From Paraglaciecola sp. (GTDB taxonomy: Bacteria; Pseudomonadota; Gammaproteobacteria; Enterobacterales; Alteromonadaceae), in the NCBI GenBank assembly GCA_009993955.1, contig JAACSL010000001.1, positions 186,001-250,000 of the forward strand: 64,000 nt of DNA. The letters are read 5' to 3'. Of this stretch, positions 10,947 to 52,061 are shown piece after piece. The position numbers and the translations under genes were made by a program. The notes under the pieces were generated by a model. The model was not told the origin of the DNA, made no database searches, and was given only the letters and a program-made list of their open reading frames with translations. The stretch's first letter is position 1; each line of letters opens with the position of its first letter.

Positions 10947-13625
10947 TTATTCAGGATCATCTGCATCAACAATATCGGCATCACGTGCATCAACTAATTC
11001 AGCTGAATCGAGGCTTTCGTCGACGTTAATTTCGTCTTCTTCAATCTCGTCAATGCGCTGCAAACCAACCACGTGTTCGCCTTCGATGGTGCGAATTAAA
11101 CGCACGCCTTGTGTGTTTCTCCCCACGGTAGATACTTCACTTACGCGAGTTCTCACTAGAGTACCTTGGTCGCTGATCAACATGATTTCATCTGATTCAT
11201 TGACTTGTACTGCTCCAACTACCTTGCCATTTCGTTCAGATACTTTGATCGATACGACCCCTTGAGTGGCACGGCTTTTTGCAGGGTAATCTTGGATCGG
11301 CGTGCGCTTGCCAAATCCGTTTGCTGTGGCAGTAAGAATTGCCCCATCGCCCTGCGGTACAATGAGAGATACGACTTTCTGGCCCTCTGGCATTCTGATA
11401 CCACGTACACCCGTTGCCGTTCTACCCATCGGACGCAAAGCTAATAATTCTTCGCCTGTTTCAGGATCGATTTTCACTTCACCGGTTTCAGAGTCTCGTT
11501 GTTTTTCGTTAAAACGAACAACTTTACCGGCATCCGAGAACAACATAATGTCGTTTTCACCATTGGTAATATCAACACCAATTAACTCATCACCATCATT
11601 CAAATTAACGGCAATGATACCGTTAGCTCTTGGACGTGAATATTGGGTTAACTCGGTCTTTTTAACTGTACCATTGGCGGTTGCCATTAATACATATTTA
11701 CCCTCTTCAAATTCTTTGATAGGTAAAATTGCTGTGATCCGTTCATTTTCTTCCAATGGCAGAATATTCACGATTGGACGACCGCGTGCATTTCGACTGG
11801 CCAGCGGCAATTGATACACTTTTAACCAATATAAGCGACCACGCGTTGAGAAACACAGGATGTGGTCATGGGTATTGGCCACTAACAATTTCTCAATGAA
11901 ATCTTCGTCTTTCATCTTGGTAGCTGACTTACCACGGCCACCACGACGTTGCGATTCGTAGTCGTTAAGTTTCTGGTATTTAACGTAACCTTCACGTGAC
12001 AACGTCACCACCACATCTTCTTGCTCAATCAGGTCTTCGATGTCGATGTCATGTGATGCTGAAGTAATCTCCGTGCGACGAGCGTCACCAAACTCATCAC
12101 GAATTTTTTCCAATTCTTCACGAATCACTTCCATCAATCGCGCTGGACTGCCCAAGATGTGTAAAAGCTCAGCAATCAAACTCAGTAATTCTTGGTACTC
12201 AGACAAGATTTTATCGTGTTCTAAGCCCGTTAATTTATTTAACCGTAAGTCAAGGATCGCTTGCGCTTGTTGCTCTGTCAGATAGTACTTAGCGTCACGA
12301 ATACCGTATTGTGGCTCTAACCAATCAGGACGTGCTGCGTTGTTCCCAGCACGCTCTAACATCTCAGCCACATCACCTAGGTCCCACCCTTGCGCCACTA
12401 AGGCTGTTTTGGCGTCTGCTGGAGTCTTAGACGCTTTGATGAGGGCGATAATAGGGTCAATGTTCACTAACGCGATGGCTAAGCCTTCGAGTATGTGGGC
12501 ACGCTCCCGAGCCTTTTTCAATTCATACACGGTGCGACGCGTGACAACTTCACGACGGTGCAAGATAAATGCTTGCAAAATCTCCAATAGATTCAACACT
12601 TTGGGCTGTGTTTTATCCAAGGCGACCATGTTGATCCCAAACACAGTTTGCATCTGAGTTTGTGTATATAAATGGTTCAGCAATACTTCTGCTGATTCAT
12701 TGCGACGAACTTCAATAACGATACGCATACCATCTTTATCAGACTCATCACGCAGGGCAGAGATGCCCTCTATTTTTTTCTCTTTGACAAGTTCTGCAAT
12801 TTTTTCAATCAAGCGTGCTTTATTCACCTGGTAGGGAATTTCATGCACGATAATCGTTTCTTTACCGTTTGCTTCTGTTTCGATCTCGGCACGTGCACGC
12901 ATGTACACCTTGCCGCGTCCGGTGCGATAGGCATCTTCGATGCCTTTACGACCACTAATAATGGCTGCTGTGGGGAAGTCGGGACCGGGAATATAAGTCA
13001 TCAGCTCATCAACGGTTAGCTTGGGGTTATCCACCAGTGCGATACAACCGTTGACTACTTCAGTTAAGTTGTGAGGGGGAATATTGGTGGCCATACCCAC
13101 TGCAATACCAGACGAGCCATTCACCAACAAATTAGGCACTTTAGTTGGCAAGACTTCAGGGATCATTTCCTGACCGTCGTAGTTAGGCACAAAATTAACC
13201 GTTTCTTTATCGAGATCAGCTAATAATTCATGGGCAATTTTCGCCATGCGGATTTCGGTATAACGCATGGCAGCGGCTGAGTCACCGTCAACAGAACCAA
13301 AGTTTCCTTGACCATCAACCAGCATGTAACGCAACGAAAATGGCTGAGCCATACGCACGATCGTATCGTACACCGCTGAATCACCGTGAGGATGGTATTT
13401 ACCGATAACGTCACCCACTACCCTAGCGGACTTTTTATACGGCTTATTGAAATCATTTTTGAGTTCGTTCATCGCAAACAAAACTCGGCGATGCACTGGC
13501 TTTAAGCCATCTCTCACGTCAGGCAGCGCCCTGCCAACGATTACACTCATCGCATAGTCTAGGTAGGAGTTCTTCAACTCTTCTTCGATATTGATGGGCA
13601 GAATTTCTTGGGCGTGATCAGTCAT
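10947..13625 (-). CDS. gyrA: DNA gyrase subunit A
   Basis: Breakage-reunion subunit that introduces negative supercoils with GyrB. It has 892 residues (E. coli 875). The active-site tyrosine lies in AAAMRYTE. The quinolone-resistance region reads [17 protein letters not shown], i.e. Ser and Asp at the positions of E. coli S83 and D87. The GyrA-box motif QRRGGRGKS begins the C-terminal beta-pinwheel, and an acidic tail rich in E and D ends the protein. The ATG has AAGG upstream. It is divergent from ubiG, as in E. coli. Confidence 0.97.
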
Positions 13626-49033: not shown

Positions 49034-50323
49034 ATGGCATTACACTCAGCGTTGGGAAGTTTACTATTGAGACGTATTTTAATCCTGCTGTTCATCTTAA
49101 CGGGGACGGCGCAAGGTCAACAAACGGCACAAAACCTGTTTAGCCAACATCAGTCAGCCCTTTACCAAATTCGTATTATAGAGCTTGAGTCTGGCAACAA
49201 ATCGTCCATCGGCTCAGGTTTTCAAGTGGATGCTTTGGGTAATATGCTGACCAACTATCATGTGGTGTCTGATTACGTATTCTACCCCGAAAAATACCGC
49301 ATCGAATTTCTGACCAGTGACGGCCAAACCGGACCATTAAATCTCATCTATTTTGATGTGGTCAATGACTTAGCCTTGGTCAGAAAAGTGGCGGTACACG
49401 AAAGTGAACATGCCTTTGCTGTAGCCACCGAACTGCCAGAACAAGGCTCGACGATATACTCACTGGGCAACCCACATGACCTAGGTATGATTGTTGTACC
49501 AGGCACCTTTAACGGATTAAAAAAGAATAGCTTTTATCAACGGATTCATTTCACCGGATCAATTAACCCTGGCATGAGTGGCGGTCCCGTGGTTAATCCT
49601 GAAGGTGAAGTGATGGGTGTCAATGTCGCCACTGCGGGGAACCAGATTGGCTTTTTAATACCCCTCAACAAGGTAACAGCGATATTGCAAAATCGCCCAA
49701 ATGAAGTATTACCCACAGAAGCATTCAAGCCCACTATCCAAGAGCAATTGCTAGACAATCAACGAGACATGATCAGTATCTTGCAAAACACTGAGTGGGT
49801 GTCTAATCCCTTAGGTGATGCCAGTGTGCCGACCAAAATTGGTGATTTTTTATCATGTTGGGGAGACTCGAATACCAGCGACCAAGAAGCATTATTTTTA
49901 TCTGTTGAAAATCGCTGTCGCTTAGATGAGCAAATTTACTTACACAGTGGCCTGATGAGTGGCGGTGTAGAGTTGGAATTTGAATGGTTAAGTGGCAAAG
50001 ACTTAGGCGATCATCGGTTTTATTCTCTGTATTCTAAAAGTTTAGCCGGTGCTGGCCCCAGCAATAATGCGGGTAAAACGGATGTCAGCAACTTTCAGTG
50101 TCAGCAACATAAAGTAGTCAACATTCATGGCGTAAGCAGCAAAACAGTATTCTGCCTACGTGCCTACAAAGAATTTAACCAACTGTACGATGTGGTTTTT
50201 GTTGGTGCTACCCTCGACCATGATCAGCAGGGACTCATCAGCCACTTCACCTTAGCCGGTGTTTCACAAAGTTCAGCGCAAAGTTTTACGCAACAATTTA
50301 TGGATGCAATAACATGGCGATAG
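49034..50323 (+). CDS. Exported trypsin-like serine protease (S1C-like, no PDZ)
   Basis: 429 residues. A signal sequence (LLLRRILILLFILTGTAQGQ) is followed by a chymotrypsin-fold domain with the triad His76 (LTNYHVVSD), Asp112 (VVNDLALVR) and Ser182 (NPGMSGGPVVN), very close to DegP/HtrA in these blocks. No PDZ domain follows; the C-terminal 200 residues are unrelated to any family I know, with cysteine pairs (SCWGDS, NRCRLDE, NFQCQQHK, FCLRAYK) that suggest disulfides. It overlaps the FHA gene by 10 bp, so the products are likely made together in the periplasm and membrane. Confidence 0.82.
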   Translation: MALHSALGSLLLRRILILLFILTGTAQGQQTAQNLFSQHQSALYQIRIIELESGNKSSIGSGFQVDALGNMLTNYHVVSDYVFYPEKYRIEFLTSDGQTGPLNLIYFDVVNDLALVRKVAVHESEHAFAVATELPEQGSTIYSLGNPHDLGMIVVPGTFNGLKKNSFYQRIHFTGSINPGMSGGPVVNPEGEVMGVNVATAGNQIGFLIPLNKVTAILQNRPNEVLPTEAFKPTIQEQLLDNQRDMISILQNTEWVSNPLGDASVPTKIGDFLSCWGDSNTSDQEALFLSVENRCRLDEQIYLHSGLMSGGVELEFEWLSGKDLGDHRFYSLYSKSLAGAGPSNNAGKTDVSNFQCQQHKVVNIHGVSSKTVFCLRAYKEFNQLYDVVFVGATLDHDQQGLISHFTLAGVSQSSAQSFTQQFMDAITWR

Positions 50324-51297
50324 TGGTTGAGTTGTTGTCGCGCAAGAATCTGCCGATTAAACATTTTAAGTTTGATAAAAACAGTATCACCATTGGCCGT
50401 GACTACCATACTGATTTGCATTTAGATGACCCTTACGTCTGCCCCACCCACTTGGTCATCGAACAAAATAATGATGGTGAATTGCAGTTAAGTGACTGTC
50501 AATCGGTCAATGGGGTTATGGTTAACCACAAGACGGTGAGTCAACAAGTCCTTGGCGCAGATGACATTATCAAAATTGGCCGCAGTCGTTTGCGTATTAT
50601 TGATCCGGCTAAACCCGTTACAGCAGCCTTGGTATTGAGTCCCCTTGAGGAAAAGCTTGGGTGGTTGAATAGCAGTTTGCTGGCTATTTTACTGACGCTG
50701 GCCTATTTAGCCTACTCGTTGTTAACAGCCTACATAGGCAGCGTAGCTGAGTTTAAAATCGCTAAAGCTTTGCCACAGGTTTTAGGGCAGATGGCAGCCA
50801 TTAGTTTGTGGCCGCTAATGCTGGCGGCACTAGCAAAAATATTTCGCAAAGATAGTCATCTCGTCAGTCAATTTAATTTGATTTGGTTACTGTTGTTAGG
50901 CGTCAATGCCTTAGGTTTATTTCAGTCCATTCTATATTTCAACTTTCAATTTGGTAGTTGGTATGAGTGGTTTGAATTTTTTGTCTTTGCCGCCATCGTT
51001 TGTGGTTTCATTTGGATCACCCTGTTTATTGGGTTTCACCAAGCCAGTCGACGCCGCAATATCTATACGGTGAGTTTGACCTCTATTGTCCTAGCCCCCA
51101 TTCTGATATTCGGCATGCTAGAAAATAACGATTTCAGCCCTCGCCCCGAGTATGATGCCACCATACTGCCACCGAGTTACCATTTTACCAGCGCGGATAC
51201 GACTGAGGAGTTTATATTACATACTGCTGATTTGTTTCAGGCGGTAGATAAATTGGTGACTGACAAGTCAAACATACCTGTCGTTGATGTTGAATAA
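50314..51297 (+). CDS. FHA-domain membrane protein
   Basis: 327 residues. The N-terminal FHA domain (about 20-95) has the phosphothreonine-site pattern: TIGRDYHTDLHL, CPTHLVIE, and SVNGVMVN with the binding Asn. About five hydrophobic helices (120-270) follow and an acidic C-terminal tail (280-327). With a cytoplasmic FHA domain and five helices the tail would face the periplasm, where the protease lies. It overlaps the protease gene by 10 bp and the NRDE gene by 1 bp (TAATG), so the three are co-translated. Function unknown. Confidence 0.8.
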   Translation: MAIVVELLSRKNLPIKHFKFDKNSITIGRDYHTDLHLDDPYVCPTHLVIEQNNDGELQLSDCQSVNGVMVNHKTVSQQVLGADDIIKIGRSRLRIIDPAKPVTAALVLSPLEEKLGWLNSSLLAILLTLAYLAYSLLTAYIGSVAEFKIAKALPQVLGQMAAISLWPLMLAALAKIFRKDSHLVSQFNLIWLLLLGVNALGLFQSILYFNFQFGSWYEWFEFFVFAAIVCGFIWITLFIGFHQASRRRNIYTVSLTSIVLAPILIFGMLENNDFSPRPEYDATILPPSYHFTSADTTEEFILHTADLFQAVDKLVTDKSNIPVVDVE

Positions 51298-52061
51298 TGT
51301 GCATCTTATTTGTAGCGGTACAGCAACATCCAAAATACCCGCTCATCATCGCGGCCAACCGTGATGAGTTTTTTGCCCGGCCCACCCAAGCCTCTGGATT
51401 TTGGCCTGCAGCACCAGAGGTATTGGCAGGTTTAGATCAACAAGCCGGCGGAACTTGGATGGGGGTAAATAAAAACGGTTATGTGGCCGCCCTCACCAAC
51501 ATTCGTGATCCTAAGACAATACGCACCGATGTGATCAGTCGTGGTCATTTGGTGAGCCAATATTTAATTGAACCACCACAACATTATCATCTGGATTTGC
51601 ATGCTACACGAGAGCAATACAATGGCTACAACCTACTGTATGGCCATTGGCAACAGTTGCAGGTCTACAATAACCATCTTGATCAGCATTATGCCCTGCA
51701 TCCGGGAGTGTATGGTTTATCAAATGCAAGTTTAAATAGTCCTTGGCCGAAAATTGCCAAAGGCACTGACAAGTTACAGGCTTATTGTCAGGATCCACAC
51801 GCCATTCACACTGAGCAATTATTTGAATTATTATTTGATTCAAGTTTAGCCCCAGACCATGAACTACCTGAAACTGGGGTACCAAAGGATTGGGAAAAGC
51901 GACTGTCGGCCATTTTTATTCGTGGTCTAGATTACGGTACTCGTTCCTCCACTGTATTAACCATAGACAATCAAGGTGTACTTGACTGGCACGAACGTAG
52001 TTTTAACAATCAGACTACACTTATCAACGAACAGCATTTTCAATTTCAACTAGCCAAGTAA
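51297..52061 (+). CDS. NRDE (TANGO2-like) family protein
   Basis: 254 residues. The family-defining motif IIAANRDEFFARP is at residues 17-29, followed by GGTWMGVNKNGYVAALTN; the N-terminal Met-Cys suggests an N-terminal nucleophile-like start, as seen in related T10 proteins. TANGO2-type proteins are poorly understood (haem or lipid handling has been proposed in eukaryotes). It overlaps the FHA stop by one base. The next gene is 95 bp away behind its own promoter region. Confidence 0.82.
   Translation: MCILFVAVQQHPKYPLIIAANRDEFFARPTQASGFWPAAPEVLAGLDQQAGGTWMGVNKNGYVAALTNIRDPKTIRTDVISRGHLVSQYLIEPPQHYHLDLHATREQYNGYNLLYGHWQQLQVYNNHLDQHYALHPGVYGLSNASLNSPWPKIAKGTDKLQAYCQDPHAIHTEQLFELLFDSSLAPDHELPETGVPKDWEKRLSAIFIRGLDYGTRSSTVLTIDNQGVLDWHERSFNNQTTLINEQHFQFQLAK

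What the first reader, a model, noticed from the sequence alone, without database searches (positions are those of the whole stretch)
49034..52061. Co-translated trio: exported serine protease, FHA membrane protein, NRDE protein
Three genes overlap by 10 bp and 1 bp. The protease has a perfect trypsin triad and HtrA-like blocks but no PDZ domain; instead it has a 200-residue cysteine-bearing C-terminus. The FHA protein joins a cytoplasmic phosphothreonine-binding domain to about five membrane helices and a likely periplasmic tail. The layout suggests a signalling link across the membrane in which phosphorylation controls the protease or the reverse. I know of no described system of this form.
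Basis: partly seen in the sequence, partly recalled or inferred. Interest (0 to 1): 0.55.

Follow-up and report, generated by a model that had tools for sequence, protein, structure and literature searches.

The report
Paired periplasmic protease and phosphothreonine receptor
Two overlapping genes, one for an exported protein-cutting enzyme and one for a membrane protein with an inner phosphate-reading domain, are inherited together across many bacteria, which suggests an undescribed switch that lets the inside of the cell control protein cutting outside the inner membrane.

Summary
The protease (P) and the FHA membrane protein (F) form a two-gene unit conserved far beyond the genus; the third gene (NRDE/TANGO2) is only a local neighbour. 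F overlaps P in 80 of 80 named loci, by exactly 10 bp in 75. Of 369 class-level genomes, 22 hold both, 2 hold P alone (both at contig edges), and F alone is one marginal hit. The triad and four C-terminal cysteines are invariant in 45 of 45 P; F keeps the FHA Arg in 41 of 44 and the Asn in 42 of 44. In one family poor in Hanks-type kinases, F lost its FHA domain in 6 of 12 genomes but kept its membrane part and tail beside an intact P. That favours inside-out control: phosphothreonine as input, periplasmic proteolysis as output. It would work like LapD-LapG with unrelated parts. Contact, phosphothreonine binding, kinase and substrate are inferred; a co-variation test gave no contact signal. 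Nine literature searches listed no description of the pair.

The parts
49034..50323 (+). P: exported trypsin/HtrA-type serine protease with a four-cysteine C-terminal domain (true start may be TTG 49067)
49034..49123 (+). signal peptide region of P (approximate end)
   Evidence: hydrophobic stretch; an Ala-x-Ala-like site pattern found in 66 of 80 named relatives as called
49202..49693 (+). protease domain; His76 at 49259-49261, Asp112 at 49367-49369, Ser182 at 49577-49579
   Evidence: Trypsin_2 on residues 60-196; triad invariant in 45 of 45; HtrA fold in the model
49715..50320 (+). C-terminal domain of P with Cys275, 295, 356, 374
   Evidence: four Cys invariant in 45 of 45; no Pfam match in 10 of 10 members; strand-rich, confident model
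50314..50323 (+). 10-bp overlap of P and F
   Evidence: 10 bp in 23 of 25 relatives' loci and 75 of 80 named loci
50314..51297 (+). F: FHA domain, five membrane helices, likely periplasmic tail
50314..50607 (+). FHA domain of F (Gly28, Arg29, His46, Asn66, Gly67)
   Evidence: PF00498 and PF16697 above cut-off; nearest folds GarA, OdhI, FhaA
50674..51123 (+). five membrane helices of F (residues 121-270)
51124..51294 (+). C-terminal tail of F, about 57 residues with one helix, likely periplasmic
   Evidence: odd helix number and positive-inside rule; helix 297-319 in the model; Pro278 in 34 and Phe300 in 33 of 44
51297..52061 (+). NRDE/TANGO2 gene: neighbour, not part of the conserved unit
   Evidence: next to the pair in 21 of 25 relatives' loci and near it in 16 of 80 named loci

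Best explanation
P and F are a two-protein transmembrane module by which cytoplasmic threonine phosphorylation sets the activity of a periplasmic protease. A Hanks-type Ser/Thr kinase phosphorylates a cytoplasmic protein or itself; the FHA domain of F binds that phosphothreonine; binding changes the five-helix membrane part; and the periplasmic tail of F then recruits, restrains or activates P, perhaps through the four-cysteine C-terminal domain of P. Shown by computation: the pair and its linkage, the domain layout, conserved catalytic and FHA residues, a likely topology, and decay of FHA in one lineage poor in Hanks-type kinases. Inferred: contact between P and F, phosphothreonine binding, direction, sign (activation or restraint), kinase and substrate.
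For: F directly beside P in 80 of 80 named loci, in 44 of 45 flanked loci (the 45th ends at a contig edge) and in 8 of 8 further loci, five of them from outside the class. Joint presence in 369 class genomes: 22 both, 2 P only (contig edges), 0 F only apart from one marginal hit, 344 neither. Invariant triad and cysteines in 45 of 45 P; FHA Arg 41 of 44, Asn 42 of 44; five FHA residues invariant in 64 rows. Five helices in 37 of 45 F. Kinase as the next gene after F in L096-L099 and L247, kinase plus PP2C upstream in L102 and L104, others in L107, L182, L202; 7 loci in 5 genera against about 1 expected. In family f175 F lacks FHA in 6 of 12 while P stays catalytically intact in 12 of 12: the FHA looks like a removable input and the protease the output.
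Against: Kinase presence does not separate carriers from non-carriers. In f175 the match is inexact: G681 keeps Arg29 with no kinase hit, and three FHA-less genomes have a kinase-like protein; f175 is one family. L115, L103, L106 and L110 have altered FHA pockets although their genomes have kinases. Mutual information between P and F showed no tail-protease signal. The window's genome has no PP2C_2 hit, and its one kinase above cut-off is not near the pair.
Confidence: 0.5

Rival explanations
1. Outside-in: P or the tail of F senses the state of the envelope, and F passes this to the cytoplasm by holding or releasing a phosphorylated partner at its FHA domain. P may cleave the tail of F.
For: Same anatomy and same joint inheritance. 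HtrA-type proteases such as DegS act as envelope stress sensors (recalled). A CHASE2 kinase follows F in L247.
Against: Where FHA is lost, this reading loses its output, yet P keeps its triad and F keeps its membrane part and tail.
Confidence: 0.2
2. Scaffold: F is a membrane anchor or folding partner for P, and the FHA domain places the pair at a kinase-marked site such as a division or growth zone without gating the activity of P.
For: FHA is dispensable in f175 while the membrane part and tail are kept. Mycobacterial FhaA binds a phosphorylated envelope protein domain (structure 3oun).
Against: Nothing here tests it directly; it differs from the main reading only in whether phosphothreonine changes P activity.
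Confidence: 0.2
3. Overlapping but functionally independent genes that happen to share an operon.
For: Overlapping genes are common in bacteria (recalled), and the window's third gene is such a neighbour.
Against: P was found in 24 handle families and F adjoins it in the 23 where this could be tested, in changing neighbourhoods; joint presence is nearly perfect.
Confidence: 0.05

Closest known systems
LapD-LapG (c-di-GMP receptor and periplasmic protease)
   Same: An inner-membrane receptor reads a cytoplasmic signal and controls a periplasmic protease (PMC4359373, abstract and outline seen). Here too, receptor and protease genes are linked.
   Different: No shared part found: F has FHA and five helices, not c-di-GMP-binding domains; P is a trypsin-type serine protease, whereas LapG is a cysteine protease (recalled).
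HtrA/Deg proteases (DegS, DegP, DegQ)
   Same: Protease domain fold and sequence
   Different: No PDZ found; a different, four-cysteine C-terminal domain; an obligate membrane partner gene
T6SS Fha/TagH with kinase PpkA
   Same: Phosphothreonine read by an FHA protein (PMC3953482, abstract and outline seen)
   Different: TagH model far below cut-off (26.9 of 120.25 bits); F has five helices, and its partner is a protease
FHA-FHA-trypsin protein NP_811686.1 of Bacteroides thetaiotaomicron
   Same: FHA and trypsin linked, here in one chain (PMC2605481, passages seen)
   Different: A single fusion in another phylum; no membrane part is named in the passages; not compared here by sequence
MarP (mycobacterial membrane serine protease)
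   Same: Serine protease tied to membrane helices; weak domain match (48.3 bits)
   Different: Cut-off of 250 bits not reached; membrane part in the same chain and no FHA (recalled)

Membership tests
HtrA/Deg (S1C) proteases | Chymotrypsin-like domain with His-Asp-Ser triad | tested here: met
HtrA/Deg (S1C) proteases | C-terminal PDZ domain | tested here: not met
   no PDZ among Pfam hits at E up to 1; no Pfam match in the C-terminal domain of 10 of 10 members
HtrA/Deg (S1C) proteases | Curated family models over cut-off | tested here: not met
   best 73.5 of 416.2 bits
FHA domain | Domain model over cut-off and FHA fold | tested here: met
   49.2 of 20.7 bits; FHA folds are the top matches
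FHA domain | Phosphothreonine-pocket Arg, His, Asn kept | tested here: met
   Arg29 41, His46 40, Asn66 42 of 44; invariant in 64 rows
FHA domain | Phosphothreonine binding | not testable with these tools
   needs binding assay
LapD-LapG | GGDEF/EAL domains in the receptor and LapG-type cysteine protease | tested here: not met
   no such Pfam hit in P or F
LapD-LapG | Receptor and periplasmic protease genes linked | tested here: met
   this concerns 'works like', not membership
T6SS TagH/Fha | TagH model over cut-off | tested here: not met
   26.9 of 120.25 bits
T3SS YscD | Cytoplasmic YscD-type FHA domain | tested here: met
   PF16697 43.7 of 33.2 bits
T3SS YscD | Single membrane helix (recalled) | tested here: not met
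   five helices in F
MarP | Curated model over cut-off | tested here: not met
   48.3 of 250 bits
RsgI9-type S1C-NTF2 protein | NTF2-like domain after the protease domain | tested here: inconclusive
   7sjy at rank 11 and 12 with rmsd 17; the C-terminal domain was not folded alone
RT-Protease_XI (PADLOC) | Reverse transcriptase fused to the protease domain | tested here: not met
   only model positions about 330-508 match; no RT hit in P

The most novel reading that the evidence does not exclude
P-F is a phosphothreonine-gated inside-out switch for periplasmic proteolysis: an FHA receptor turns cytoplasmic Ser/Thr-kinase signals into protein cleavage on the far side of the inner membrane. It is a counterpart of LapD-LapG built from unrelated parts and widespread in Pseudomonadota.
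Probability: 0.45. Interest if true: 0.8.

Novelty: new variant of a known kind. Interest (0 to 1): 0.62.

Why it matters
Outside type VI secretion, few outputs are known for Hanks-type Ser/Thr kinases in Gram-negative bacteria (recalled). A conserved receptor-protease pair would give them a periplasmic output in a small module that can be assayed. Family f175, where FHA has been shed and the rest kept, offers a natural separation of input from output.

Tried and rejected
Trio as the unit: rejected. NRDE lies near the pair in 16 of 80 named loci (L123-L138, Paraglaciecola and close relatives), and its distance to F varies.

Genome-wide kinase or phosphatase presence as proof: not discriminating. 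Kinase in 46 of 48 carriers and 28 of 32 non-carriers, Fisher p 0.21. PP2C_2 hits in 63 of 80 of the same genomes, none in the window's own at E up to 1e-5.

Contact by mutual information on 92 non-redundant pairs of 122 (rows L113, L116, L121 left out): no tail-protease signal. The top pair is the overlapping codons; the real top scores exceed shuffles (0.349 against 0.198), which shared ancestry can explain.

No Pfam match; PDB sequence profile gave a weak Titin stretch (E 0.0036, none passing on its own) and AgrA at E about 0.6. The membrane part has no consistent Pfam family: 20 families with scattered weak hits, Yip1 in 8 of 40.

Translation of F without its own ribosome site: not supported; an SD-like stretch precedes F in 58 of 80 named loci.

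Literature: nine searches. No listed paper describes the pair, but some listings were capped (20 of 92, 18 of 20, 8 of 21, 15 of 52), and the library lacks most subscription papers.

Full report
Setting. The window lies in a 4.16 Mb genome of 82 contigs. The eleven best named matches to its protease are Paraglaciecola (74-63% identity), so the host is probably a Paraglaciecola-like marine member of Alteromonadaceae (inference).

P (49034-50323), F (50314-51297) and an NRDE/TANGO2 gene (51297-52061) lie head to tail with overlaps of 10 and 1 bp. P matches Trypsin_2 over residues 60-196 (and Trypsin), no PDZ, and its last 200 residues match no Pfam model. F matches FHA over residues 25-89.

Conservation of the pair. 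In the search of 40 relatives, 25 loci with near-full-length F were examined. P lies directly upstream in 25 of 25, with an overlap of 10 bp in 23 and 13 bp in 2. A profile of the P C-terminal domain hit 19 of 295 order genomes and 24 of 369 class genomes. Of 45 flanked loci with P, 43 have F beside it by the F model, a 44th (L121) has a shorter relative without FHA, and the 45th (L122) ends at a contig edge. One F (L113) is itself cut by a contig end. F overlaps P in 80 of 80: 10 bp in 75, 13 in 4, 22 in 1. A phylum sample had P in 19 of 398, five of them outside the class; in the eight new loci fetched, F is beside P in 8 of 8. By handle labels P occurs in 24 families, and F beside it in the 23 that could be tested.

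Joint presence. A profile of only the membrane part and tail of F, run on the same 369 class genomes, gave 22 strong matches, all in genomes with P. The two P genomes without a match (G458, G615) have the locus at a contig edge. One further genome (G599) has a marginal hit, E 9.5e-4. The profile was built from F proteins found beside P, so a very divergent lone F could be missed. Neighbouring genes differ between lineages. After P and F, the most frequent neighbour cluster is a Ser/Thr kinase (8 of 46 loci examined, 7 of them with the pair, Pfam checks). NRDE is next to the pair in 21 of 25 relatives' loci and near it in 16 of 80 named loci.

Residues. In 45 P proteins, His76, Asp112, Ser182 and cysteines 275, 295, 356 and 374 are invariant. 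In 44 F proteins (partial row L113 left out), Gly28 is kept in 43, Arg29 in 41, His46 in 40 and Asn66 in 42. In 64 rows (the window's F and 63 non-redundant named ones), Gly28, Arg29, His46, Asp61 and Asn66 are invariant. The near-invariant Trp428 of P is at least partly forced by the overlap, since its TGG sits inside the ATGG start of F.

Structure. The AlphaFold2 model of P (pLDDT 92.4, pTM 0.89, 56 sequences) has an HtrA-type protease domain (Z 26.3 to HtrA1, rmsd 2.7 over 191 residues) and a strand-rich C-terminal domain whose fold was not tested alone. The F model (pLDDT 92.4, pTM 0.75, 64 sequences) has an FHA domain, with GarA and OdhI leading the list and FhaA further down, five membrane helices and a tail with one helix. 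Hydropathy finds five helices in 37 of 45 F sequences, four in 6, two in the shortened L121 and none in the partial L113. In most rows the third inter-helix loop is nearly free of Lys and Arg and the fourth is basic; the first and second differ less. With FHA in the cytoplasm this fits a periplasmic tail. A pattern for a signal cleavage site was found in 66 of 80 named P as called.

A natural experiment. In family f175 (unnamed), P is present in 12 of 12 genomes with triad and four cysteines intact, and F is beside it in 12 of 12 (in G688 and G689 after a gap of about 30 bp). F lacks FHA in six (G463, G684, G687, G688, G689, G690), judged by model coverage and by Pfam for G463 and G690. Arg29 is replaced in G574, G682 and G685 and kept in G681 and G683; G686 was not scored at residue level. 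Pfam still recognises FHA in G574. A Pkinase hit is absent in 7 of 12, and the other five have one weak hit; by eye four look TerY-type and one like a lanthipeptide synthetase (labels recalled). The match is inexact: G681 keeps Arg without a kinase hit, and three FHA-less genomes have the TerY-type protein. In the 44-row set, both kinase-less genomes have lost Arg29, against 1 of 42 other rows (Fisher p 0.003), but those two are one family. Pockets are altered in L103, L106, L110 and L115 although their genomes have kinases.

Reading. If information flowed only from periplasm to cytoplasm, losing FHA would remove the output and the rest should decay. Instead protease, membrane part and tail persist, so FHA looks like a removable input and proteolysis the output. 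Kinase linkage fits: a kinase is the next gene after F in L096-L099 (Pfam on L096 and L098, the others by cluster) and in L247 (CHASE2 kinase, about 100 bp away); kinase and PP2C lie upstream in L102 and L104 (Pfam on L102); L107 has a kinase on the other strand; two Microbulbifer loci have one upstream. Counting only the first set, 7 loci in 5 genera stand against about 1.0 expected in 48 genomes (P of 5 or more: 0.004). The window's genome has one FHA protein, this F, and one Pkinase above cut-off, 626 aa, elsewhere on the contig, besides one weaker hit below cut-off.

What it works like. LapD-LapG is the nearest logic (PMC4359373, abstract and outline), but no part is shared. T6SS Fha shares phosphothreonine reading (PMC3953482, abstract and outline). 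A Bacteroides FHA-FHA-trypsin fusion is on record (PMC2605481, passages). Nine literature searches listed no paper describing this pair; several listings were capped.

Limits. Contact, phosphothreonine binding, sign, kinase and substrate are inferred. Mutual information gave no contact signal. Genome-wide kinase presence does not separate carriers from non-carriers.

Noticed in passing
L036 (G003:C47:245000-263000) and L037 (G003:C11): One Paraglaciecola-like genome carries two P-F pairs, a canonical one and a diverged one (P 39%, F 25% identical to the window's).
   Followed up: partly
window 49034-50323: PADLOC's RT-Protease_XI models match the protease domain of P (E 4e-16): the protease half of those reverse-transcriptase fusions resembles this domain.
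   Followed up: no
L043 (G036:C1:2907000-2924000): A 799-aa protein of the kinase cluster is flanked by two 118-aa FHA proteins, away from the P-F pair.
   Followed up: no
L247:7731-10316 and 11119-11835: A CHASE2-Pkinase protein and a second FHA protein follow P-F in a genome of another class.
   Followed up: partly
L177: A contig titled a Klebsiella pneumoniae MAG carries the pair at 43% identity among Alteromonadaceae-like matches; probably mislabelled or contaminated.
   Followed up: no
L206:4236-6116: The window genome's one Pkinase above cut-off is a 626-aa protein without an obvious membrane helix, between an RlmJ-like and a thioesterase-like gene (labels recalled).
   Followed up: partly
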